A stretch of DNA of 64,000 nt from Pseudorhizobium pelagicum (lineage in GTDB: Bacteria > Pseudomonadota > Alphaproteobacteria > Rhizobiales > Rhizobiaceae): positions 180,137 to 244,136 of the forward strand of contig JOKI01000005.1 in assembly GCA_000722615.1 (NCBI GenBank), written 5' to 3'. The position numbers and the translations under genes were made by a program. The notes beneath the pieces are model-generated. The model made no database searches, had not been told where the DNA came from, and worked only from the letters and a program-made list of their open reading frames with translations. Shown here piece after piece: positions 2,275 to 14,223 of the stretch. Each line of letters begins with the position of its first letter. Within the stretch, counting starts at the first letter, position 1.

Positions 2275-2328
2275 GACCATACTCCCTTTCGCGGGATAAT
2301 CCGGCAATGCCGCCAGTGGTTCCCAAGG

Positions 2329-3003
2329 TTGCTGTTCGGCCTTGGCGCCACCCTCCTCGCCGGCTGTACCGGAGACCTGTCGGCACTCGATCCGGCCGGA
2401 CCATCCGCTGCCTCGATCGCCCGCCTGTGGTGGGTGATGCTGGCGGCATCGGCCTTGCTTTTCCTGCTGGTCATGGGGCTGCTTTTCGTCGCCATCATGT
2501 TCCCGCACTTCGGCAGACGGATTTCGCAGCGGTCGTGGATCCTGGCCGGGGGGCTCGCGCTGCCGATCCCGATCCTTTTTGCCCTGACCTTCTACGCCTT
2601 CTGGCAAGGCGAATACCTGCTGAGGGGTGGCGGCACAGAAGCCGAGGAGCTCGTCCGCGTCGAGGCGCTGGGAACGCGGTGGCAGTGGCAATTCCGCTAC
2701 CCGGATACAGCCGAAAACCCCACCACATCCGGCGTCCTGCACATCCCCGCCGGAAGAACTGTCGAGGTTGCGGTCACCAGCACGGACGTCATCCACAGCT
2801 TCTGGATCCCGCGCCTGGCGGGCAAGATCGATGCCGTCCCGGGTCACGTCACCTATCTGCGGCTGCGCGCAGATCGACCGGGCCGCTACGGCGGCCAATG
2901 CGCGGAATATTGCGGCACCGGCCATGCCGGCATGAACTTCGAGGTTCACGCCCACGCGGAAGAGGATTACGCCGCCGCCCTCGGCATCGAGAAAGCCCCA
3001 TGA
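2329..3003 (+). CDS. coxB: Cytochrome c oxidase subunit II
   Basis: Subunit II of an aa3-type oxidase, which accepts electrons from cytochrome c at the CuA centre. After a lipoprotein-like signal (L-L-A-G-C) there are two transmembrane hairpin helices, then a cupredoxin domain with S-F-W-I-P-R-L and the complete CuA ligand set C-A-E-Y-C-G-T-G-H-A-G-M near the C-terminus. The start is uncertain: no ATG lies in frame near the N-terminus. TTG at 2329 is the closest usual start, but the residues just upstream (R-Q-W-F-P-R) look like a natural signal-peptide n-region, so translation may begin earlier from a rarer codon. It overlaps coxA by four bases, indicating translational coupling. Confidence 0.85.
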   Translation: MLFGLGATLLAGCTGDLSALDPAGPSAASIARLWWVMLAASALLFLLVMGLLFVAIMFPHFGRRISQRSWILAGGLALPIPILFALTFYAFWQGEYLLRGGGTEAEELVRVEALGTRWQWQFRYPDTAENPTTSGVLHIPAGRTVEVAVTSTDVIHSFWIPRLAGKIDAVPGHVTYLRLRADRPGRYGGQCAEYCGTGHAGMNFEVHAHAEEDYAAALGIEKAP

Positions 3004-5516
3004 CAGATCACCACGAGAAACCCACTTCGCCGATTGCCCTTCATCATGCACTGGACCGGATCTGGGGCACGAAATCCGGCTGGGGCCGCCTGGCAACCGT
3101 CAACCACAACGTGGTCGGCAAGCGGTTCATGCTGACGGCGCTTATCTTCTTTGCCATCGGCGGATTGCTTGCCATGCTGATCCGCACGCAGCTTGCCTCG
3201 TCGCAAAGCGCATTCATGGATGCGGAGCAATACGCGCAGGTCTTCACCATGCATGGCTCGGTGATGATGTTCCTGTTTGCGATACCGTTCTTCGAGGGAT
3301 TGACGATCTACCTACTCCCGAAGCTTCTTGGCACCCGGGACCTCGCCTTTCCGCGGCTGACCGCATACGGCTTCTGGTGCTACCTCTTTGGCGGCAGCAT
3401 CTTGATCATTGCGTTGATCGGCGGCGTTGCACCCAACAGCGGCTGGTTCATGTACACGCCGCTCTCCTCGGACATCTATTCGCCGGGCATCAACTCCGAT
3501 GTCTGGCTGCTGGGGATCACCTTCGTCGAGATCTCTGCTCTTTCGGCGGCCATCGAGATCATGGTGACGATCCTGAAGCTGCGGGCGTCCGGCATGTCGC
3601 TCGACAGGATGCCGATCTTTGCCTGGTACATGCTGATCGTGGCAACGATGATGCTGGTCGGCTTCCCGCCGCTCATCCTCGGGTCGATCCTTCTCGAGAC
3701 CGAACGGGCCTTCGGCCTGCCGTTCTTCGACCCGAACCGCGGCGGCGACCCGCTCTTGTGGCAACACCTCTTCTGGCTGTTCGGCCACCCGGAGGTTTAC
3801 ATCATCTTCCTGCCTGCCGCCGGCGCGATATCGACCATCCTGCCCGTCTTTGCCGGAACGCCGCTGGCGGGCTACCGTATCATCATCGCCGCACTGGTCT
3901 CGACGGCCTTCCTGTCCTTTGGACTCTGGGTCCACCACATGTACGCGGTGGGAATACCGCACGTCGCACTCTCGTTCTTTTCCGCCGCCAGCGCGCTGGT
4001 GGCAATCCCGACCGCCATCCAGATCTTCGCCTGGCTGGCGACCATCAGCCACGGGCGACCGCGCTTTTCCGTTCCGATGCTGCACATCATCGGCTTCTTC
4101 TTCGTGTTCGTGATCGGCGGGCTGACGGGCGTGATGCTGGCCATGGTGCCGTTTGACTGGCAGGCCCACGACACGCACTTCGTGGTCGCGCACCTGCATT
4201 ACGTCCTGGTCGGCGGCTTCGTGTTTCCCATGCTGGCGGCCGCCTATTACTGGTTGCCGCACATCACCGGTCGACAGCCCGTGCAGCATCTGTCGCAGGC
4301 CGCCTTCTGGATGATCTTCCTGGGCTTCAACATCACCTTCTTCATGATGCACCTGACAGGCCTGCGGGGCATGCCGCGGCGCGTGTTCGAATACCCGCCG
4401 GAATCGGGCTGGGAGATGCTGAACTTCTTTTCGTCCCTCGGCAGTTTCGTGATGACGATGGGCTTTGCACTGGTGGCGCTCGATTTCATCCTTCTCTTCC
4501 GGTTCGGCCGTCCCTTCCGGCGCAATCCCTGGCGCGCCGGCACTCTGGAATGGGCAATGCCGACCCCCTCACCCTCCTACAACTTCGCCTCCCTCCCGGT
4601 CATCGATCGGCGTGCGGATATGCTCGATCCCGATGTGCTCGGACCGCAGCTGGCCGCCGGCAAGGGGCTGCTCGGCTTTCCGCGCGACGGGCGCATGGAG
4701 CTTCTGGCCGTCGACATCGTGACCGGCAAACCCGAGCACGTGGTTCGCCTGCCGCGCCAGTCCTTCATGCCGCTCTGGACAGCGATCGGCACCGGCTTCT
4801 TCTTCCTGTCGCTGCTCTTCAAGTTCTACTGGGTCACTCCCTTCGCTCTTGCCTCCGTGGTCTTCATGTTTCTCCTGTGGAGCAGGGACACCGCCGAAAA
4901 GGATGACCTCGGAAACCTTCCGATCGGCAACGGACAGGAATTGCCGCCGCACATCGAGGCGGAACGACCGCCATCCTGGTGGGCCATGGTCTTTGCGCTC
5001 GTCGCCGATGCGACGGCCTATATCTCGCTTCTGTTCGGGAGCCTCTTCCTCTGGATCTCCGCCCCGAACTGGCCGCCCCAGGACATCGGGCAGATCGGGC
5101 TGCTGGGACCTGCAATCGCCGCTGTCTCGCTGGTGCTGGCTGCGTGGTCCGGTCGCCAGGCTTCCGCCGGGGGCGGCAAAGGCGCAGTTGGCTGGCTCTC
5201 GCTGACGACTGTCGGCCATCTGATCGCCACCACCGTCTTCCTGTGGCTGGCGTTGACGGCCCTGCCGTCGCCGCGCAGCCATGCGGCCGTCGCCAGCATC
5301 TTCGTCGTCTTCATCTACGCCGCAATGCACAGCGGGCTTGGAGCCGTGTTTGCCGGCTACGGGATCTGGCGGGTGCGCAGCGGCTTCGTCTCGCCGAGGC
5401 GCAATCTGGATCTGCGCATCGGCGTGCTCTGGCACGGTTTTGCCGCCATGGTGGGGCTCGCCGCCGCGGGCTTCCCCTTCGTCCTCGCCAGCCTCACCAG
5501 CGAGGTTTCTCCATGA
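3000..5516 (+). CDS. coxA: Cytochrome c oxidase subunit I-III fusion
   Basis: An 838-residue fusion of the catalytic subunit I (residues about 1-600) with a subunit III domain (about 660-838). Subunit I shows the CuB and cross-link motif H-P-E-V-Y, the W-V-H-H-M-Y pair, and the haem ligand stretch H-F-V-V-A-H-L-H-Y-V. The Glu of H-P-E-V is the one used at the end of the D proton channel in type A oxidases. The subunit III part has several helices but lacks a free-standing start. It reduces O2 to water and pumps protons across the inner membrane. The order subunit II, I-III, small protein forms one operon with four-base overlaps on both sides. Confidence 0.93.
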   Translation: MTDHHEKPTSPIALHHALDRIWGTKSGWGRLATVNHNVVGKRFMLTALIFFAIGGLLAMLIRTQLASSQSAFMDAEQYAQVFTMHGSVMMFLFAIPFFEGLTIYLLPKLLGTRDLAFPRLTAYGFWCYLFGGSILIIALIGGVAPNSGWFMYTPLSSDIYSPGINSDVWLLGITFVEISALSAAIEIMVTILKLRASGMSLDRMPIFAWYMLIVATMMLVGFPPLILGSILLETERAFGLPFFDPNRGGDPLLWQHLFWLFGHPEVYIIFLPAAGAISTILPVFAGTPLAGYRIIIAALVSTAFLSFGLWVHHMYAVGIPHVALSFFSAASALVAIPTAIQIFAWLATISHGRPRFSVPMLHIIGFFFVFVIGGLTGVMLAMVPFDWQAHDTHFVVAHLHYVLVGGFVFPMLAAAYYWLPHITGRQPVQHLSQAAFWMIFLGFNITFFMMHLTGLRGMPRRVFEYPPESGWEMLNFFSSLGSFVMTMGFALVALDFILLFRFGRPFRRNPWRAGTLEWAMPTPSPSYNFASLPVIDRRADMLDPDVLGPQLAAGKGLLGFPRDGRMELLAVDIVTGKPEHVVRLPRQSFMPLWTAIGTGFFFLSLLFKFYWVTPFALASVVFMFLLWSRDTAEKDDLGNLPIGNGQELPPHIEAERPPSWWAMVFALVADATAYISLLFGSLFLWISAPNWPPQDIGQIGLLGPAIAAVSLVLAAWSGRQASAGGGKGAVGWLSLTTVGHLIATTVFLWLALTALPSPRSHAAVASIFVVFIYAAMHSGLGAVFAGYGIWRVRSGFVSPRRNLDLRIGVLWHGFAAMVGLAAAGFPFVLASLTSEVSP

Positions 5517-5971: not shown

Positions 5972-6874
5972 ATGCCAAGCGCGCCAGCTACCCCACTGCC
6001 CACTCCGGCGCCGCGTCCGATGAGCGACTGTCAAGGTCTCGCCATATCCCACGCCGGTCACGCCACCCGCCTGAAATGGCACCGTCTTCGCCGCCGGCTC
6101 GACGATCCCTTGTTCTCGGCGGCCGTCATGAAGGATGGCTTTCGCCTCGGCGCCTCCGTGGAACTGGACCTGAAGGTCCGCGCCGACGGCGGCTTCGTGG
6201 TTCTCCATGACGACGTTCTGGAGGGAGAGACGACGGGTCAGGGCCCAGTCCGCGACGCCTCGGCCGCCGACCTTCGGAAACTGCAGATGAAGGTTGGTGG
6301 CGAGGCTCTGACGCTGAGCGAAGATCTGGCCGACATGCTCCCCACCGCGCATCCGCATGCGCTCCTGCAGTTCGACATGAAGGACGACCTCGCCTCGATC
6401 GGCGAACGGGGACTGGACCATCTCACGGGCCATTTCCGCCACCTGGGTCAGCACGTGATCGTCAGCGCTTCCGATCTGGATCTGATCCTCGCCATCAAGA
6501 AACGCATGCCCGACCTGCGGCGCGGGATCGACCCGACCGACCAGCTGGTGGATCTGCTGCACGGCGAGGGCCTGAGCGCCGTAGAGAAGGCCCTGATCGC
6601 AGACATCACCGGACCGACCGAGCCCGAGACCATCTATCTGGCATGGCCGCTTCTGCTGGACGCCGCCAGGCAGGGGCTGGACATGATCGGGATCTGCCAT
6701 AACCACGGCAAGATCGTCGACGCCTGGACCTACAACCTGCGTGATCCTGCCCAAGGCTTTAGCGAAGGCGAATGGCAGGAATTCCGGTCTCTGATGGCGC
6801 TCAGGCCCGACCAGATCACCACGGATGAGCCCCTGGCCACCGAACAGGCCTGGGCCGACAGAACAGCCCCCTAA
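5972..6874 (+). CDS. Divergent glycerophosphodiester phosphodiesterase family protein
   Basis: A 300-residue TIM-barrel GDPD-like protein. It keeps the E-L-D metal pair (V-E-L-D-L-K), the catalytic H-D-D (V-V-L-H-D-D) and a later D-M-K where most members have E-x-K. The canonical N-terminal H-R-G is replaced by S-H-A-G-H and no E-N-T follows, so it is a divergent member that may have a different diester substrate. The start at 5972 has CAGGAG upstream; an internal ATG at 6020 is an alternative. It runs toward the phosphatase gene with only two bases between stops, so it is part of the same functional locus although separately transcribed. No export signal is evident. Confidence 0.75.
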   Translation: MPSAPATPLPTPAPRPMSDCQGLAISHAGHATRLKWHRLRRRLDDPLFSAAVMKDGFRLGASVELDLKVRADGGFVVLHDDVLEGETTGQGPVRDASAADLRKLQMKVGGEALTLSEDLADMLPTAHPHALLQFDMKDDLASIGERGLDHLTGHFRHLGQHVIVSASDLDLILAIKKRMPDLRRGIDPTDQLVDLLHGEGLSAVEKALIADITGPTEPETIYLAWPLLLDAARQGLDMIGICHNHGKIVDAWTYNLRDPAQGFSEGEWQEFRSLMALRPDQITTDEPLATEQAWADRTAP

Positions 6875-6876
6875 GG

Positions 6877-7704
6877 CTAGGCTGCAGGGGCGGCCTGCGA
6901 CAGGCCGGCCGCTTCGACCAGGAAAGCAAGCTCGGCACTCAGACCCGGCGTGCAGGCAACGACCGGGCCGCCGCGGGCGATCATCTCCGCAAGCATGGGC
7001 GCAGACACCTCGACACCTGCCTCGCGGGCAATCAGGATGCCGGCCAGCATGTCCCAGGCCGACAGCTGCCGCTCGTAGTAGAGATCGGAGATGCCTTCCG
7101 CGACCCGGACAAGCCCGATTGCGGCCGCTCCCATGCGTCGATAGTCGATGCCGCGATCGTAGAGCCCCCGGGATACGGCGAGATAGTCCTCGAAGTCCGT
7201 GCGGCGGGAGTGGCCGAGGATGGCGATGGCGTGCCCGGGGTCGGTGGTGGTGGATGCCTTGATGGCAGTGCCATCCTTGAACGCACCTTCACCGCGAATG
7301 GCGTGGAATACCTTGTCCTGCGCCGCGTCGTAGATCACCCCGACCAGGATCTCGCCCGCTGCGACGAATGCGATGGAGACGCCCCAGTGGCGGAAGCCGC
7401 GGATGTAGTTGGTGGTTCCGTCGATGGGATCGACCACCCAGGTCCCGCCTTCACCGGCAACTCCGCCCCCCTCCTCGCCCATGAAGGCGTCCTCCGGAAA
7501 GGCATCGAGCAGCGCAGTGCGGATGGCGCCTTCGGCCCGCTTGTCGGCCACGGTGACGAAATCCTGAGTTCCCTTGCTCTCCACAGCAAGCGTCTCCGGC
7601 AGGGCCTCGGCCCTGAAAGCGGCAGCCGCGCGACCAACCTCGCGGGCAACGGAAATGGCTGCCTCGGCGCGGGCCTTGAGCGAGGCGATATCGAATGATG
7701 TCAT
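6877..7704 (-). CDS. Inositol monophosphatase family phosphatase
   Basis: A 275-residue Mg-dependent phosphatase. All family motifs are present: G-E-E near residue 76, W-V-V-D-P-I-D-G-T-T-N near 90-100 and W-D-M-L-A-G near 218. Members hydrolyse inositol phosphates, 3'-phosphoadenosine phosphates or sugar phosphates. Its ATG directly abuts the TAG stop of the GDPD-LacI gene, making it the last gene of the importer operon. In this setting the likely job is to remove phosphate from the product released by a phosphodiesterase, such as a sugar or inositol phosphate. The specific substrate cannot be told from sequence. Confidence 0.85.
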   Translation of the reverse strand: MTSFDIASLKARAEAAISVAREVGRAAAAFRAEALPETLAVESKGTQDFVTVADKRAEGAIRTALLDAFPEDAFMGEEGGGVAGEGGTWVVDPIDGTTNYIRGFRHWGVSIAFVAAGEILVGVIYDAAQDKVFHAIRGEGAFKDGTAIKASTTTDPGHAIAILGHSRRTDFEDYLAVSRGLYDRGIDYRRMGAAAIGLVRVAEGISDLYYERQLSAWDMLAGILIAREAGVEVSAPMLAEMIARGGPVVACTPGLSAELAFLVEAAGLSQAAPAA

Positions 7705-9456
7705 CTATGCACTTCTTCTCGTGATCAGGGTGATGGGGGTGAACTCCACCCGCGCCACGGCATCCGGTTCGGACATGCGGCTGGTCAGCAGGTCGACGGC
7801 CTGGCTTGCCTGCACGTCGCAGGGCTGCAGGAAGGTGGTCAGTTGATAGGCGCTCCAGCTTGCCTGGGGAATGTCGTCGTGCCCGACGACCTTTATGAAC
7901 CCGTCGTTGCGGCCCCTGGCTGCCAGACCGTCCAGCACGCCGCAGGCCATGTAGTCGTTCACGGAGAAGACGCCGTCGATGCCGAGGTCGAGCAGCTCGC
8001 CCGCCGCTTGTTGCCCATGGAGGTAATCGTTGATCGCGACCGGCACCAGCTGCGCCTCGACGCCGAGTGTCGAACAGCGTGCCAGAAAGGCTTCCGCCCG
8101 CCGGCGTGACGAATAGGACACGGCGGCCCCGGAGACCACGGCGAGCTTTTTCGCTCCGGATTTCAGAAGAACATCGGCGGCCGTGTAGCCCGCCATACGA
8201 TCATCGGAAACGACCCGGTCGACGAAAGGAAAGTCCTCTCCCTTGTTGATGAGGACAATCGGCACGCCCTCGGCGGCGCATTCCTCAAAGATATGGGACG
8301 GAGGCGCATCGGAGGTAACGATCACACCGGAGACGGCATAGTGCAGCAGCTGACCGATGACGGTCGCGCTGTCGGCCTCCTTGGACGTCGGCAGCAGGAT
8401 CGGCCGGAAATTGCGCGCAATCAGCGTGTGGGCCAGTTGTTCGAGCTGCAATGTCCGGAAGGGGTTGTCGAGCCCGGCCGCAACCAGTCCGACAAGGTCG
8501 GAACGCTTGTTGGTGAGGCTGCGGGCCAGATAGTTGACCCGGTAGCCCAGCTCCTTTGCAGCCTGATAGACCTTCTCCCGCGTCTTGTTCGAGACGCTGG
8601 CGTCCGGTGTAAAGGCGCGCGACACTGCGGCGCGCGACACGCCGGCCGCCTTTGCGACGTCGAAGGACGTTACCCGGCGAAGCTCGCGCGCCTGGCCATT
8701 GCCATTGCCGTTGCCCGGCTTCGAGCGCATCAGATCCGGCAGGTCGGTGCAGATGCCGAGAACCGGAAGCGCCATGATGTCGCTCAAGACCTCCGGCCTC
8801 TCCTCGTGCCACAGCACGATCTGCCTGCCGTCGGCGAAGGCTCTTTCCAGAAGCGCCTCGGTCACGAACTCCTGCGGCGTCTCGCTTGCCCGCTCCCAGC
8901 AGAGGTGCAGGATATCGGCGCTCGCCTCGTCGCCCAGCGCGTGCGGATCAGCCCCGACACGGACCAGCACGGAGAGCGGGTAGTCGCACCCCAGCTCCCG
9001 CAGTTCGCGCACCTGCGCCGCGTCGAAGGAGCCGAAGCAGGCAAAGCGCTGGTCCATCTCCTTGAGGTGCTGCCAGCAGAGCGGGCCGGTACCAGCCCGC
9101 TTCAATTCGACGTAGAGGCCGCAGCCGGTCTCGCGCGCCAGTGCCGCGACGTCCTCGAAGCTCGGCACATCCGGAACCTCTCTCCGCAGGTCCGCAAACG
9201 ACATCTGCGAAATATGCAGATCCTTCTGGAAGACACGCTGGAGATGGTCGTCATGGGAGACGACGACGACCCCATCCGCCGTCATCTGGGTGTCCAGTTC
9301 CCACATCTCGGCACCGAGTTCGGCAGCAAGGCGGAAGGAAGACAGCGTGTTTTCGACGCTGTGACCGCTTGCCCCGCGATGCCCGATGCAGAAAGGCCGG
9401 CCCGAGGCGGTGGAGGGCCAGGCAAAGCGTGCGAGGAAATCCGAGAGATCGTTCAT
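7705..9456 (-). CDS. GDPD-LacI fusion: phosphodiesterase domain joined to a LacI-family repressor
   Basis: A 583-residue two-part protein. Residues about 20-243 form a full GDPD domain with every catalytic motif: H-R-G at 26-28, E-N-T at 35-37, E-L-D at 53-55, S-H-D-D at 67-70 and V-E-L-K at 116-119. A flexible G-N-G-N-G-N-G linker at 248-254 follows. Residues 263-310 are a LacI helix-turn-helix and hinge (T-S-F-D-V-A-K-A-A-G-V-S-R-A-A-V-S-R), and about 318-583 a periplasmic-binding-protein-like effector domain ending near the usual LacI terminus. The start at 9456 has GGAGA upstream and follows the ATPase stop by one base. It likely represses its own importer operon and may cleave or sense the phosphodiester inducer. 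LacI proteins normally have the HTH at the extreme N-terminus, so an enzyme placed ahead of it is odd. Confidence 0.9.
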   Translation of the reverse strand: MNDLSDFLARFAWPSTASGRPFCIGHRGASGHSVENTLSSFRLAAELGAEMWELDTQMTADGVVVVSHDDHLQRVFQKDLHISQMSFADLRREVPDVPSFEDVAALARETGCGLYVELKRAGTGPLCWQHLKEMDQRFACFGSFDAAQVRELRELGCDYPLSVLVRVGADPHALGDEASADILHLCWERASETPQEFVTEALLERAFADGRQIVLWHEERPEVLSDIMALPVLGICTDLPDLMRSKPGNGNGNGQARELRRVTSFDVAKAAGVSRAAVSRAFTPDASVSNKTREKVYQAAKELGYRVNYLARSLTNKRSDLVGLVAAGLDNPFRTLQLEQLAHTLIARNFRPILLPTSKEADSATVIGQLLHYAVSGVIVTSDAPPSHIFEECAAEGVPIVLINKGEDFPFVDRVVSDDRMAGYTAADVLLKSGAKKLAVVSGAAVSYSSRRRAEAFLARCSTLGVEAQLVPVAINDYLHGQQAAGELLDLGIDGVFSVNDYMACGVLDGLAARGRNDGFIKVVGHDDIPQASWSAYQLTTFLQPCDVQASQAVDLLTSRMSEPDAVARVEFTPITLITRRSA

Positions 9457-9457
9457 G

Positions 9458-10513
9458 CTAAAGTCTCCGGCCATCCTCGGCAAAGACCAGCGCCGCGGCG
9501 CTCTCCAGTTTCCAGCTCACGCTGTCCCCCGCTCTCACGTCATCCTGCGCCGGTTGCACCGAGCGCAGCACAGAGCCGTCCGGCAAGGCAACATCATAGA
9601 GGTTCTCACGCCCCTGCGTCTCGGCAAATATGACCTTGCCCGAAATCGGCACATCGCCGGCGCGCCCGAAGTGCTCCGGTCTGATGCCGACCGTCAGGTC
9701 GGTTCCGTCAGGGATTTGGGAAGCGACAGGAAGCGGAAGCCTGAGGCTGCCATCGTCGAGAACGAAGCCCCCCGCCTCCGCACGCCCCTTGAGGAAGGAG
9801 ATCGGCGGATTGCCCAGGAACCCGGCTACAAAGGAGGTGCGCGGATTGCTGTACATGTCCTTCGGCGTGTCGATCTGGATGATCTTGCCACCTTTCATGA
9901 TGGCGATCCGTTCGCACATCGACATGGCTTCCACCTGATCGTGCGTCACCAGGATGGCGGTAATCCCGGTCTCCAGCTGGATGCGGCGGATTTCCGAGCG
10001 CATCTCCAGCCGCAGCTTGGCGTCCAGATTGGCGAGCGGCTCGTCGAGCAGCAGCACGTCGGGCTTGCGCACCAGGGCCCGCGCCAGCGCCACCCGCTGC
10101 TGCTGCCCGCCGGACAGCTGGCCGGGGCGCCGCTCCAGGAGCTCCGAGATGTGCGTCAGCTCGGCAATGTCCCGAACCGCCCGATCGACATCTGCCTTGC
10201 TGTCCTTGCGGACGGTCAACGGGAAGGCGATGTTCTCGAAGACGCTCATGTGCGGATAGAGCGCGTAGTTCTGGAACACGACGCCGACATTGCGCTGCTG
10301 GCTCGGCAGATTGCTGACGTCGCGGTCGCCGAACAGGATCTGCCCGCCGTTGACCCGGTGGATGCCGCAGACGGCAAAGAGGGTCGTCGACTTGCCGCAC
10401 CCCGAGGGACCGAGGAGGGCGAGCATTTCGCCGTCCTCAACCGTCAGGTTCATGCGGTCGATGACGGTATTGCCGTCAAAGGTCTTGGTGAAATCTTTCA
10501 GGACGATTTGCAT
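9458..10513 (-). CDS. MalK/UgpC-type ABC transporter ATPase
   Basis: A 351-residue ATPase that powers the importer made of the next two upstream genes. It shows Walker A G-P-S-G-C-G-K-S (35-42), signature L-S-G-G-Q-Q-Q-R (133-140), Walker B L-L-L-D-E-P (154-159) and a C-terminal TOBE/OB regulatory domain of the CUT1 (MalK/UgpC) subfamily from about residue 235. Its start overlaps the stop of the 10513-11337 permease by one base. CUT1 importers take up di- and oligosaccharides, glycerol-3-phosphate or glycerophosphodiesters. Confidence 0.92.
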   Translation of the reverse strand: MQIVLKDFTKTFDGNTVIDRMNLTVEDGEMLALLGPSGCGKSTTLFAVCGIHRVNGGQILFGDRDVSNLPSQQRNVGVVFQNYALYPHMSVFENIAFPLTVRKDSKADVDRAVRDIAELTHISELLERRPGQLSGGQQQRVALARALVRKPDVLLLDEPLANLDAKLRLEMRSEIRRIQLETGITAILVTHDQVEAMSMCERIAIMKGGKIIQIDTPKDMYSNPRTSFVAGFLGNPPISFLKGRAEAGGFVLDDGSLRLPLPVASQIPDGTDLTVGIRPEHFGRAGDVPISGKVIFAETQGRENLYDVALPDGSVLRSVQPAQDDVRAGDSVSWKLESAAALVFAEDGRRL

Positions 10514-11337
10514 CAGCCTTTCGTGCCTCCGCCGAAAATGTTCATCAGTCGGTCCCGGAAGATGGCGTAGAGCGCCAGGATGGGCAGCGTGTAGAACAGC
10601 CCGACCGACTTAAAGAGGTTGAAGTTGTAGGTGGTGGAATCCGGGTCCGAGACCGTGTTCAGGTAGATCGACAGAACCTCGAAATCGGCGGACGGTGCCA
10701 GGATGCGTGGCAGCATGTATTCGCCCCAGGCATCGATGGCCGCAAACAGCGCCAGCGCGAAAAGACCGGGTCTGACCTGCGGCAGGATCAGCCTGCGCCA
10801 GACCGTGAACCGGCTTGCGCCATCCTGCACGCCTGCCATTTCGATCTCCCACGGAACGGTGTCGTAGAAGCCCTTCATGATCCAGATGCCGAAGGGCAGC
10901 ATCAGCCCGGCCTTGACCAGCACGACGCCGGTCAGCGTGTTGTAGAGGCCGACGAACTGCAGCACGAGGAAGACGCCGATGATCAGCGTCACCAGCGGGA
11001 ACGCGTGCATGACGAGAATCCCGCCAAGGAAGAACCGCCGGAACGGCATGTTGAGCCGCGACAGCGCGTAGCCGGCGGTGGAGGAAACCCCGAGCACGAT
11101 CAGGACGATGCTTGCCGTGAACAGGATCGTCGTCAGCGTCGGACCCCAGACGTCACCGGTCGCGGTCGGATCGATCAGGAAGCGCCAGTGCGATAGCGTG
11201 AAGCCATTCGGGATGGCCGAGCCGGGCGGCGAAGTGGTGACCGTGTCGACCAGCAGGAAGGCATACATCACGATGATCGGCGCGCTGATCAGGAGCAACA
11301 CCAGGATGATCGGCCAGTTGGAATAATTGCGTGTCAT
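10513..11337 (-). CDS. MalG-type ABC transporter permease
   Basis: A 274-residue inner-membrane permease of the CUT1 family with six predicted helices. The ATPase-coupling EAA loop is visible (E-M-A-G-V-Q-D-G-A-S followed by L-I-L-P-Q-V-R-P). It is the second permease of the importer and starts nine bases after the MalF-like gene stops. It forms the translocation pore with the 11347-12657 product. Confidence 0.9.
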   Translation of the reverse strand: MTRNYSNWPIILVLLLISAPIIVMYAFLLVDTVTTSPPGSAIPNGFTLSHWRFLIDPTATGDVWGPTLTTILFTASIVLIVLGVSSTAGYALSRLNMPFRRFFLGGILVMHAFPLVTLIIGVFLVLQFVGLYNTLTGVVLVKAGLMLPFGIWIMKGFYDTVPWEIEMAGVQDGASRFTVWRRLILPQVRPGLFALALFAAIDAWGEYMLPRILAPSADFEVLSIYLNTVSDPDSTTYNFNLFKSVGLFYTLPILALYAIFRDRLMNIFGGGTKG

Positions 11338-11346
11338 GTGCTTCCC

Positions 11347-12657
11347 TCAGAATTCGATTTTCGGCCGGCCGAGAAGCTCGTCGAACCGGAACAGCCTGAG
11401 GTAGATGATCGACAGCGACACGCCGACGATAACCAGGATGAGCGCCATGGCGGCACCGAGGCCATACTGGAGGTTGCCGGTGTAGCTGTTCAGCGCAGTA
11501 TTGAAGGATTCCAGTGCCCAGACGGTTGTCGTGCGACCGGGACCGCCGTTGGTGGTCAGCCAGATCTCCTGGTAGGAGGACAGCAGCGACAGCGTCTGGT
11601 AGCTGGTCACGAAGAGGATCGGCCAGCGCAGATGCGGCAGGATGATGTAGCGGATCTGCTGCCAGCGGCTCGCCCCGTCGACCTCGCTTGCCCAGAGCTG
11701 CTGGACCGGGATGGCTTTGAGTGCACTGGAAAACAGGATCATCGCAAAAGCGGCACCGATGAAGCCGTTGACCATGATGACGATGGTCCAGGCGGTGGGT
11801 ACCGAGCCCTTCATGTAGTTGAAGGCCGGCAGACCGAGAGCATCCGCGGCGGTGTAAAGGAAACCGCCCTCCCAGGTGAACCACTTCCACATGACGGCAT
11901 AGAGGACGATCGGTGTGATCCGCGGCAGGAGCCAGAGCATGCTGAACGCGCTTGCGGCTCCCGCAGGCAGGTAGAAGGTTGTCACGGCGAGGAACAGGCC
12001 GACAAAAACCGTGAAGGATAGCGTGACCGCCACGTAGAAGACGGTATTGAGGACAATCCGCCACGTGTCGCTGGTGGAAAACAGCTGCTTGAAATTGGCT
12101 GTCGTCCACGTCCAGCCGGTGTAGCTCGCCTCGACGATCTGATCGACCGTATCGGCAGGCGCCGAAGGCAGGAACGTGGCGATCGCCTGGCGCGCTGCGG
12201 ATTCGCTGGTGAAGCGGCTATTGAGGATGGAAAGCTCGAACTGGTCGACGGCAAGCTTCAGGTCGCGGATGGAGCGCGGCCGGTGCTGCAGGGTCTTCAG
12301 CTCGCGCTCGAACAGACGCTCGTCCGTAAACGTTCTGCCGCCGAGCTGCTGCTCGATCTCTGCGAGAAACGCAGGATCGGTACCGGCATCCCTGGCCTTT
12401 GCAATCCCCTCCGGATCGACAACGAAGCTCGCCTTGGAAAGCGCGTCGGCGATCTCGACCGGAACGCCGTTTTCCTTCAGCGCCGTCAGAAGGTTTCCCG
12501 TCACCACATAGGAACCGCCGCTGATACCTGTCGACGTACTCATATTGGTGAAGGCGAACACCGCCGTCAGCACCACAGGGAGAAAGAAGAACCCTATCAG
12601 CACGACGAGCGCAGGGCTCATGAAGGCGAGCCCGACCATGTAGGATCGCGTACGCAT
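11347..12657 (-). CDS. MalF-type ABC transporter permease with large periplasmic insert
   Basis: A 436-residue CUT1 permease, longer than the usual 290-320. Helix 1 (about 8-32) is followed by some 180 polar residues before the next helix (near 215), recalling the P2 loop of enterobacterial MalF, which contacts the binding protein. The EAA loop S-E-V-D-G-A-S-R-W-Q-Q and I-L-P-H-L-R-W-P is near residue 335. It lies between the binding-protein gene and the MalG-like gene; the 66-base gap upstream contains a strong hairpin. The insert has no obvious Cys pairs and I do not recognise it as a named domain. Confidence 0.88.
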   Translation of the reverse strand: MRTRSYMVGLAFMSPALVVLIGFFFLPVVLTAVFAFTNMSTSTGISGGSYVVTGNLLTALKENGVPVEIADALSKASFVVDPEGIAKARDAGTDPAFLAEIEQQLGGRTFTDERLFERELKTLQHRPRSIRDLKLAVDQFELSILNSRFTSESAARQAIATFLPSAPADTVDQIVEASYTGWTWTTANFKQLFSTSDTWRIVLNTVFYVAVTLSFTVFVGLFLAVTTFYLPAGAASAFSMLWLLPRITPIVLYAVMWKWFTWEGGFLYTAADALGLPAFNYMKGSVPTAWTIVIMVNGFIGAAFAMILFSSALKAIPVQQLWASEVDGASRWQQIRYIILPHLRWPILFVTSYQTLSLLSSYQEIWLTTNGGPGRTTTVWALESFNTALNSYTGNLQYGLGAAMALILVIVGVSLSIIYLRLFRFDELLGRPKIEF

Positions 12658-12687
12658 CGGTATCTCTCAAATTTAAGGGAATGGTGC

Positions 12688-12715
12688 GCCGGGCGGAACA
12701 TCAGCTCCGCCCGGC
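12688..12715 (-). promoter_or_regulatory. Intercistronic hairpin between binding-protein and permease genes
   Basis: A perfect 10-bp stem (12688-12697 with 12706-12715, 8-base loop) sits between the stop of the binding-protein gene and the start of the MalF-like gene. Such hairpins protect the upstream mRNA from 3' decay or attenuate readthrough, so that binding protein exceeds permease. Confidence 0.6.
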
Positions 12716-12723
12716 AATCGGCT

Positions 12724-14079
12724 TCAGCGGATGACGACCTTGTCGCCCAGCGTCGCCTTGATCTCGCTCTCCACGCCGCTGACGGCATCGGCGACCGGGG
12801 ACGTCTTGGTCCACGAGGCTTCCAGCCCCTTGTACATGGCCTTCCAGACGACACCGAAGTCCGGATCGTTCGGGAGCGAGGTCGCGTGCGGAAGCAGGGC
12901 TTCCGTTGCAACCGTCGTCCAGCGATCATTGGCATAGAGCGGAATCTCCGCTTCGGCCGTGCCAATCGCGAGGTGGCCCGACTTCACGGCATGCAGAGCG
13001 TTGATGCGCGGCTCCGAAGCGATGGTGATCAGTTCGGCGGCGATCGTCGCGTCATCATCCGTGCCTGTCGTGGACAGGAGGTAGACCAGCGGATGGGTAA
13101 TCGTGTTGGCACGACCCTTCTCGTTGCCCGCCGGGATGAGGCTGTACTGCATCTGGCCGAAGAAGTCCTTGAGGCCCCACTTGGTTTCCCACTCGGCCTT
13201 GTGCCAGGTGCCGCCATGCCAGATGCCGGCCTTGTCGTGGGCAACCGCGTCATGCCAGCTGTCCCAGGTGGTGCCGAGATAGGTGGCCGGAACCACGCCC
13301 TTCTCCACCGCGTCGACGAAGAACTGATACATGTCCGTCAGCGCCTGCCGGTCGAGAACCAGCTTGCCGGATTCGCGGTCGGTCATCTCGCCGCCGAAGC
13401 TCTGATAGAACTGCCAGTAGTCGGTTCCGTTCGACGGCCGCGGCATGAAGCCCTTGCCCGGTTCGACCACGCCGGCATCCTGCATCTTCTTGGCATCATC
13501 CAGCATCGAATAAAGCGTGTACTCGCCGCTCTCGACCTTGCCCGGCAGCGCCTCGATGTCGGCGTCCGTATAACCGATCGCCTTCATGTGGCTGCGGGAG
13601 AAGAAGAAGGGACGCGACTCGGCGTCCTGCGGGATGCCCCAGACCCGGCCGTCGAAGGACGCGACGTCGATCAGGTTGGGATAGAGCTGATTGAGCGGCC
13701 AGGCGTCGAAATCGACGTAGTCCTCGACCGGGCGCAGAAGACCGGACTGCGACCAGGTGCCGATGTCCTCGTGGCCGGAAACGATGATGTTGGGCGCGGT
13801 GTTGGATTCAGCCGCGAGCGTCACCGCCTGCTTGAAGTCGTCCCAGGTGGTCCAGGTCTGACCTTCCACGGTGACGTTGAGCTCCTCGCCGCGGATCACC
13901 GCCTCGCGCTCCAGGATATCGGCCGCCATCTTGATGGCTTCGATGCGGTAGTCGTTGGTGGGGCCGGTACCGCCAGCCCACACTTTAATGGTGACATCCT
14001 TGGCGGACGCAAGAACCGCAGTTGACGCAAGCAGCGCCGCTGCCAGCGTTGCGGATTTCATGAATGAAGCAACGGTCAT
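12724..14079 (-). CDS. Family 1 extracellular solute-binding protein
   Basis: A 451-residue periplasmic binding protein of the CUT1 type that delivers substrate to the permeases. The signal peptide runs to about residue 26 (A-S-A cleavage), and the mature part begins V-T-I-K-V-W-A-G-G. The fold is that of UgpB/MalE-like proteins, with aromatic-rich segments such as W-H-G-G-T-W-H and W-D-S-W-H-D that could line a carbohydrate or polar head-group pocket. The start at 14079 has GGAGG seven bases upstream. It is the first gene of a six-gene operon reading down to 6877. The GDPD and phosphatase partners suggest a phosphodiester or phosphosugar ligand. Confidence 0.88.
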   Translation of the reverse strand: MTVASFMKSATLAAALLASTAVLASAKDVTIKVWAGGTGPTNDYRIEAIKMAADILEREAVIRGEELNVTVEGQTWTTWDDFKQAVTLAAESNTAPNIIVSGHEDIGTWSQSGLLRPVEDYVDFDAWPLNQLYPNLIDVASFDGRVWGIPQDAESRPFFFSRSHMKAIGYTDADIEALPGKVESGEYTLYSMLDDAKKMQDAGVVEPGKGFMPRPSNGTDYWQFYQSFGGEMTDRESGKLVLDRQALTDMYQFFVDAVEKGVVPATYLGTTWDSWHDAVAHDKAGIWHGGTWHKAEWETKWGLKDFFGQMQYSLIPAGNEKGRANTITHPLVYLLSTTGTDDDATIAAELITIASEPRINALHAVKSGHLAIGTAEAEIPLYANDRWTTVATEALLPHATSLPNDPDFGVVWKAMYKGLEASWTKTSPVADAVSGVESEIKATLGDKVVIR

Positions 14080-14207: not shown

Positions 14208-14223
14208 TTGCACGCGTGTGCAA
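14208..14223. promoter_or_regulatory. Candidate LacI-type operator upstream of the importer operon
   Basis: TTGCAC-GCGT-GTGCAA, a 16-base inverted repeat with a central CG and one mismatched pair, 129 bases upstream of the binding-protein start. Size and central CG fit LacI-family operators, and the only LacI-type gene in the window is in this operon. Confidence 0.55.

What the first reader, a model, noticed from the sequence alone, without database searches (positions are those of the whole stretch)
7705..9456. Phosphodiesterase domain fused in front of a LacI repressor
The protein carries an intact GDPD domain (H26, E53/D55, H68, E117/K119 all kept), a G-N repeat linker, then a full LacI repressor. 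A repressor with its own catalytic domain could destroy or convert its inducer, or gate DNA binding by substrate hydrolysis, giving a built-in shut-off. The HTH is internal, which is rare for LacI proteins.
Basis: partly seen in the sequence, partly recalled or inferred. Interest (0 to 1): 0.82.

Follow-up and report, generated by a model that had tools for sequence, protein, structure and literature searches.

The report
Enzyme fused to its operon's repressor
In one group of soil and root-nodule bacteria, two neighbouring genes, one for an enzyme that looks built to cut phosphate diesters and one for the likely gene switch of the same uptake operon, have merged into a single protein, which offers a natural test of whether the enzyme feeds the switch directly.

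Summary
ORF 7705-9456 (-) is one uninterrupted 583-residue frame with a GDPD domain (26-241), a G-N linker, a LacI helix-turn-helix (266-308) and a full LacI effector domain. It is no artefact: of 76 related loci, 24 carry the same fusion, 50 carry the two domains as adjacent overlapping genes, one is disrupted, one has LacI alone. The 25 fused proteins, window included, form one clade (100/100); sister group and outgroups are split, so one fusion of an overlapping gene pair is the simplest history. Active-site residues are invariant in 77 of 77 GDPD rows; the palindrome at 14208-14223 has a counterpart upstream of the operon in 75 of 75 loci tested. Best reading: a local repressor of an ABC importer/GDPD/phosphatase operon whose enzyme half makes its inducer, a phosphomonoester, as AccF does for AccR in agrocinopine use (PMC4526662, passages). 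The wiring is inferred by analogy; substrate, inducer and cross-talk between halves are untested. The 'built-in shut-off' idea is possible but less supported; the neighbouring phosphatase is a likelier shut-off. New variant of a known kind.

The parts
7705..9456 (-). fused gdpd-lacI gene, 583 aa plus stop
   Evidence: one open frame; same fusion in 24 of 76 loci
8734..9381 (-). GDPD domain, residues 26-241
   Evidence: PF03009, 4.5e-25; catalytic residues invariant in 77 of 77 rows
8680..8727 (-). linker: R244 and 15 variable residues (245-259) with a G-N repeat
   Evidence: the variable stretch between the LMR and R/K-R-VTS motifs is 10-16 aa in the 25 fused proteins, 11 aa in 20 of them
8533..8661 (-). 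LacI helix-turn-helix, residues 266-308
   Evidence: PF00356, 1.4e-12; each position of VSRAAVSR kept in 75 or 76 of 77 rows; the row with a gap there is L068
7711..8496 (-). LacI effector (periplasmic-binding-protein-like) domain, residues 321-582
   Evidence: PF13377/PF00532; phmmer to full-length LacI-family PDB chains over about 260-582
6877..7704 (-). inositol-monophosphatase-family gene, starts at the base after the fused gene's stop
   Evidence: PF00459, 1.4e-53
9458..10513 (-). ABC transporter ATPase, UgpC/MalK type
   Evidence: PF00005, OB_MalK, TOBE_2; best NCBIfam model UgpC, 356.5 bits, below its cut-off of 432
10513..11337 (-). ABC permease 2
   Evidence: PF00528
11347..12657 (-). 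ABC permease 1
   Evidence: PF00528
12724..14079 (-). solute-binding protein, first gene of the operon
   Evidence: PF01547
14208..14223 (.). putative operator TTGCACACGCGTGCAA, about 130-144 bases upstream of the SBP start
   Evidence: counterpart within 3 mismatches of TGTACACGTGTACA in 75 of 75 loci tested; binding not tested
5972..6874 (+). second, divergent GDPD-family gene, convergent with the operon
   Evidence: PF03009, 38.5 bits; a convergent hit lies in 46 of 76 loci, 5 of the 24 fused ones; membership of the system uncertain

Best explanation
The gene encodes a single-chain 'enzyme plus repressor' that controls its own operon. The operon (solute-binding protein, two permeases, ATPase, GDPD-LacI, inositol-monophosphatase-type phosphatase) most likely imports a phosphodiester, probably of a sugar or polyol. 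The GDPD half hydrolyses it to an alcohol and a phosphomonoester; the phosphomonoester binds the LacI half and releases it from the operator at 14208-14223; the phosphatase then removes the phosphate, yielding usable carbon and phosphate and ending the signal. The fusion arose once, by joining two overlapping neighbouring genes. Shown by sequence: fusion, complete domains, operon, conservation of the operator-like site, single clade. Inferred: transport direction and ligand class, hydrolysis, DNA binding, the product as inducer, repression rather than activation.
For: Domains and active site. Order SBP-permease-permease-ATPase-GDPD-LacI kept in 75 of 76 loci (the disrupted L068 included), with the phosphatase in 74 of those 75. 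Operator-like 14-mer within 3 mismatches upstream of SBP in 75 of 75 loci plus the window, against 42 of 2250 random 320-base stretches of the same loci, not cleaned of stretches that hold the true site. No large regulon in the window's genome: 2 exact matches of the pattern, one being this site. Median dN/dS 0.126 (GDPD), 0.044 (HTH), 0.115 (core) in the fused clade, close to 0.108, 0.023, 0.114 in 42 split Rhizobium loci. Enzyme, repressor and phosphatase evolve as one module (distance correlations 0.94-0.95 over 74 rows) apart from SBP and permeases (0.70-0.80), which differ in one sub-group: the repressor goes with the enzyme, not with the transporter. Studied analogue of the same composition where the phosphodiesterase product is the effector (PMC4526662, passages). 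Two Agrobacterium plasmid records shown in both hit lists (NZ_CP123846.1, NZ_KY000039.1) have a GDPD-family match (28.9%) followed on the same strand by an IMPase-family match (34.2%), as expected of accF-accG (that name is recalled).
Against: No ligand, activity or DNA-binding data. AccR is not in the LacI family as I recall, and acc uses a different importer, so the analogy is of wiring, not of parts. The SBP has only weak matches to sugar-binding structures (best 5.8e-07), so its ligand is open. LacI-family proteins often sense free sugars; the inducer could be the diester, the alcohol or the sugar made by the phosphatase. Physical linkage alone could explain part of the module correlations: the ATPase, next to GDPD, correlates at 0.90-0.94 with both modules, and inside the 25 fused rows the contrast is weaker (0.81-0.89 within the enzyme module against 0.66-0.80 with SBP and permeases). 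The whole-genome operator count equals its reversed control (2 and 2), so it is no evidence of a specific site by itself. In 2 of 6 Neorhizobium plasmid hits (H5, H6) the LacI half is broken by frame changes, in nature or by sequencing error.
Confidence: 0.5

Rival explanations
1. Neutral fusion: one frame-changing indel in the overlap of two neighbouring genes joined them. The two halves work exactly as the separate proteins do in Rhizobium, and the junction itself has no function. (Compatible with the wiring of the best explanation; it denies only that the joining matters.)
For: Split relatives already overlap by about 10-20 bases (42 Rhizobium-type loci) or by ATGA/TGATG (8 Chelativorans and Devosia loci), so one indel could suffice. 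The linker varies in length and sequence, and dN/dS of both halves is much alike in fused and split clades.
Against: No split member was found inside the fused clade (25 of 25 fused), although linker lengths differ; this fits a need to read through, but only shows that the LacI half is translated from the GDPD start.
Confidence: 0.3
2. Self-limiting switch: the intact diester is the inducer and the GDPD half destroys it, so the repressor resets itself.
For: Enzyme and sensor share one chain and an intact active site.
Against: In the closest studied operon no affinity of the repressor for the diester was detected and the enzyme product is the effector (PMC4526662, passages). A phosphatase gene lies next in the operon and could end a phosphomonoester signal.
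Confidence: 0.12
3. The frame is fused but the cell also, or only, makes a separate LacI protein from an internal start at M243, so there is no working fusion protein.
For: M243 is an ATG in the 25 fused genes; one public annotation starts the LacI gene exactly there, although the frame is open through both halves (Neorhizobium petrolearium OS53). In 3 of 24 relatives (L008, L025, L028) a second internal ATG has a ribosome-site score of -5 kcal/mol or better.
Against: In the window the site before M243 is weak (-3.3 against -6.6 kcal/mol at the gene start); the median at M243 in 24 fused loci is -3.2 against -6.4 for LacI starts of 50 split loci, where the best of several candidate starts was taken. 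A Met at this place (LMR or MMR) is also ordinary coding sequence in the Rhizobium GDPD proteins. The test is not decisive: several Chelativorans LacI starts also score only about -3.
Confidence: 0.12
4. Sequencing or assembly artefact joining two genes.
For: Close relatives of the family have two genes.
Against: 24 public assemblies have the same single frame and, with the window, form one clade.
Confidence: 0.01

Closest known systems
Agrocinopine catabolism operon acc (AccR, AccA-E, AccF, AccG) of Agrobacterium
   Same: ABC importer, phosphodiesterase, phosphatase and repressor in one regulated unit; the phosphodiesterase product is the repressor's effector (PMC4526662, passages). Two Agrobacterium plasmid records hold a GDPD-family and an IMPase-family match side by side at 28.9% and 34.2% identity.
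   Different: Separate proteins; different importer and AccR not of the LacI family (both recalled). I did not fetch those plasmids, so that the listed matches are accF and accG is recalled.
Split GDPD + LacI operon of Rhizobium leguminosarum and relatives (pRL9, pR132504)
   Same: Same gene order, enzyme and repressor 68-76% identical to the window's, operator-like site at a similar place
   Different: Two overlapping genes instead of one; the window and six fused relatives have a different version of SBP and permeases
LacI/GalR family repressors (LacI, PurR, CcpA, RbsR)
   Same: HTH plus complete effector domain; upstream palindromic site
   Different: HTH is internal, behind about 260 residues of enzyme
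Bifunctional enzyme-repressors / 'trigger enzymes' (PutA, BirA, NadR; recalled, only a search listing seen)
   Same: Catalytic and DNA-binding functions in one polypeptide that regulates its own pathway
   Different: Other folds; in BirA, PutA and NadR the enzyme part does the sensing (recalled), here a separate LacI effector domain is present

Membership tests
GDPD (PF03009) enzymes | Profile match over the whole domain above the curated cut-off | tested here: met
   89.6 bits against cut-off 23.6, model positions 1-243 of 244
GDPD (PF03009) enzymes | Conserved catalytic/metal residues (His-Arg, E-N-T, E-x-D, H-D, E-x-K) | tested here: met
   invariant in 77 of 77 rows; their catalytic role is recalled
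GDPD (PF03009) enzymes | Phosphodiesterase activity | not testable with these tools
   needs purified protein
LacI/GalR transcription factors | LacI-type HTH and PBP-like effector domain in that order | tested here: met
LacI/GalR transcription factors | HTH at the N-terminus of the protein | tested here: not met
   HTH at residues 266-308; it is N-terminal in the split relatives
LacI/GalR transcription factors | Palindromic site upstream of the regulated operon | tested here: met
   window plus 75 of 75 loci; binding itself not tested
Agrocinopine acc system | Importer + phosphodiesterase + phosphatase + repressor in one locus | tested here: met
   by family only
Agrocinopine acc system | Close homologues of the AccA importer and AccR repressor | not tested
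   permeases and ATPase are nearest to maltose/UgpC-type models and the repressor is LacI-type; AccA and AccR sequences were not compared
Agrocinopine acc system | Phosphodiesterase product is the repressor's effector | not testable with these tools
   needs binding assays

The most novel reading that the evidence does not exclude
A repressor that carries its own inducer factory: the GDPD half releases the phosphomonoester next to the effector pocket of the same chain, so the protein senses the flux of incoming diester rather than the pool of free product, and the adjacent phosphatase clears what leaks out. By the same logic the separate GDPD and LacI proteins of Rhizobium would form a complex.
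Probability: 0.2. Interest if true: 0.75.

Novelty: new variant of a known kind. Interest (0 to 1): 0.5.

Why it matters
Enzyme-repressor fusions are known (recalled), but the full-text searches aimed at a GDPD-LacI or enzyme-LacI fusion listed no paper that describes one; the library lacks most subscription journals. Here fused and split states occur in sister clades with the same operon and operator-like site, a natural experiment for whether an enzyme hands its product directly to a regulator. It also predicts a physical partnership between the separate proteins in Rhizobium, and points to a phosphodiester-uptake-like operon shared by many Rhizobiales for which I found no study.

Tried and rejected
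Artefact joining two genes: rejected. Fusion as a trait of all GDPD+LacI operons: rejected; it is confined to one clade. In surveys of 385 class, 394 family and 397 order genomes, whose samples overlap, uninterrupted full-length matches were found only in genomes of the window's own genus: 1 of 385, 5 of 394 and 3 of 397, the three being among the five; the E-value limits were strict (1e-40, 1e-80, 1e-70) and at most 3 candidates per genome were scored, so rarer fusions elsewhere could be missed. G-N repeat as a functional element: rejected, lineage-specific. Fission in Rhizobium from a fused ancestor instead of one fusion: needs two events rather than one, not excluded. Large regulon: no sign of one for the exact pattern. 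Naming the ligand from the SBP: failed, weak structure hits only. The script printed 25 fused of 76 because it counted L080, a LacI gene without GDPD, as fused; I count 24. Paper searches listed no title on this system (two found no paper; others listed 13 of 13, 15 of 46, 15 of 21 and 8 of 95). PMC2996990 and PMC3870299 were looked at in passages and not used.

Full report
What is there. The minus-strand frame 7705-9456 codes for 583 residues without interruption. Pfam finds a complete GDPD domain (residues 26-241), a LacI HTH (266-308) and the LacI effector domain (about 321-582), all above their cut-offs. Sequence comparison with solved structures gives full-length LacI-family chains over about residues 260-582 (best 3bil_A, 4.1e-30; lac repressor, PurR and CcpA among the 60 shown of 109) and GDPD enzymes over part of the N-terminal half (1v8e_A, residues 19-166, 1.1e-14). 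The ATG lies one base after the ATPase stop, and the phosphatase gene begins at the base after the fused gene's stop, so the gene sits inside a tight operon.

Is the fusion real. A search of the genome collection (one genome for each of 84,980 species) with the protein gave 76 loci (the best 80 of 92 relatives were kept, so the list is truncated). In 24 (L005-L028: Neorhizobium, Pseudorhizobium tarimense, Rhizobium wenxiniae, R. terrae, R. populisoli, R. deserti, two Ensifer and others) both domains lie in one open frame. In 50 they are two overlapping genes: in 42 Rhizobium-type loci the likely lacI start, mostly TTG, else ATG or GTG, lies inside the end of gdpd in another frame; in 8 Chelativorans and Devosia loci the overlap is ATGA (7) or TGATG (1). 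L068 is disrupted and L080 is a LacI gene without GDPD. Public annotation of two Rhizobium plasmids shows the two genes as overlapping CDSs. Public annotation of one fused relative starts LacI at M243 and lists no gene for the GDPD part (that table omits pseudogenes), although its DNA is open through both halves. Against uniform integrity: of the six Neorhizobium plasmid hits shown, two (H5, H6) have frame changes inside the LacI half, after about residue 283-291; the GDPD-HTH junction itself is in frame in both. Whether these are real or sequencing errors I cannot say.

History. Its sister group (Rhizobium) and the other rows (Devosia, Chelativorans, L082) are split. One fusion is the shortest history; fusion earlier followed by fission in Rhizobium needs two events. 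The variable stretch between the LMR and R/K-R-VTS motifs is 10, 11, 13, 15 or 16 residues long, 11 in 20 of 25. A G-N repeat occurs in the window, its nearest relative L024 and, in weaker form, L007.

Are both halves kept. The GDPD signature residues are invariant in 77 of 77 rows; the HTH positions are filled in 76 of 77 rows (L068 has a gap) and nearly invariant. Median pairwise dN/dS (pairs with dS 0.2-1.5) in the fused clade is 0.126 (GDPD), 0.044 (HTH) and 0.115 (core), against 0.108, 0.023 and 0.114 in 42 split Rhizobium loci. So neither half has been released from selection after fusion, though the GDPD and HTH values are somewhat higher. An internal start making LacI alone is possible but poorly supported in the window; in 3 of 24 relatives a better-scoring internal ATG exists, and some split Chelativorans genes also have weak sites, so this test does not decide.

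Operon and operator. SBP, two permeases, ATPase, GDPD and LacI occur in this order in 75 of 76 loci, and the phosphatase follows in 74 of those 75 (absent at L031). Upstream of the predicted SBP start each of the 75 loci and the window has a 14-mer within 3 mismatches of TGTACACGTGTACA, at -116 to -252 (8 with 0, 9 with 1, 17 with 2, 42 with 3; the window has 3). Of 2250 random 320-base stretches from the same loci 42 were this good; stretches holding the true site were not removed, so the background is overstated. The loci are related, so the 75 are not independent, but the site also holds between Rhizobium, Chelativorans and Devosia. The pattern TGNACACGNGTNCA has 2 matches in the 5.13 Mb genome, one being this site; the reversed control pattern also has 2, so the whole-genome count is at chance and the evidence rests on position and conservation. 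In a comparative study of LacI-family factors 72% were autoregulated (PMC4052901, passages).

How it probably works. The gene set imports something, should cut a phosphodiester and remove a phosphate, and carries a LacI-type regulator. The agrocinopine acc system has the same kinds of parts, and there the repressor binds the phosphodiesterase's product L-arabinose-2-phosphate (two steps, KD about 0.11 and 1.64 uM), no affinity for the diester was detected, and in an accF mutant the diester no longer triggers quorum-sensing signal or plasmid conjugation (PMC4526662, 12 of 20 passages). By analogy I take the GDPD product as the inducer and the phosphatase as the off-switch. A further hint: in the window and six relatives (L015, L018, L019, L020, L024, L026) SBP and permeases are of a different version (mean identity 59%, 51% and 58% to those of the other 18 fused loci; 69%, 63% and 72% to Devosia's), while GDPD, LacI and phosphatase stay at 78%, 80% and 72% (ATPase 70%). 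Over 74 rows GDPD-LacI-phosphatase distances correlate at 0.94-0.95 and with SBP and permeases at 0.70-0.80; the ATPase is in between, 0.90-0.94 with either. The repressor thus stays with the enzyme when the transporter changes. Linkage could produce part of this, and within the 25 fused rows the contrast is weaker (0.81-0.89 against 0.66-0.80).

What is not shown. Repression as opposed to activation is assumed from the family. Paper searches listed nothing on a GDPD-LacI fusion, nor on this operon, but the library lacks most subscription journals, so this is not proof of novelty.

Verdict. Its mechanism is plausible only in modified form. As a kind of thing it is a new domain combination of a known kind, the enzyme-regulator fusion, with unusually good natural controls.

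Noticed in passing
window 10513-14079; L015, L018, L019, L020, L024, L026: SBP and both permeases are a different version from those in the other fused loci, while GDPD-LacI and phosphatase are not: a likely module exchange inside the operon.
   Followed up: partly
   Followed up: partly
window 5972-6874 (+): A divergent GDPD-family gene converges on the operon; a convergent hit is kept in 46 of 76 loci. By eye it lacks the usual His-Arg-Gly start of the domain.
   Followed up: partly
L111 9727-10740 (Neorhizobium petrolearium OS53): Public annotation lists only a LacI gene starting at the equivalent of M243, which hides the fusion from domain-architecture searches, although the frame is open.
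   Followed up: partly
L116 6001-7739 and L117 3001-4735: Neorhizobium galegae VafX2 and Neorhizobium sp. EC2-8 copies whose LacI half changes frame after about residue 283-291; real decay or sequencing error unknown.
   Followed up: partly
L068 about 8980-10449: Disrupted copy of the GDPD and LacI genes in Rhizobium sp. RCAM05350.
   Followed up: no
L031 about 10760-10870: No phosphatase match between LacI and the convergent GDPD gene.
   Followed up: no
window 2307-5516 (+): Long frame that reads like cytochrome oxidase subunit I followed by a subunit-III-like part in one protein; judged by eye only.
   Followed up: no
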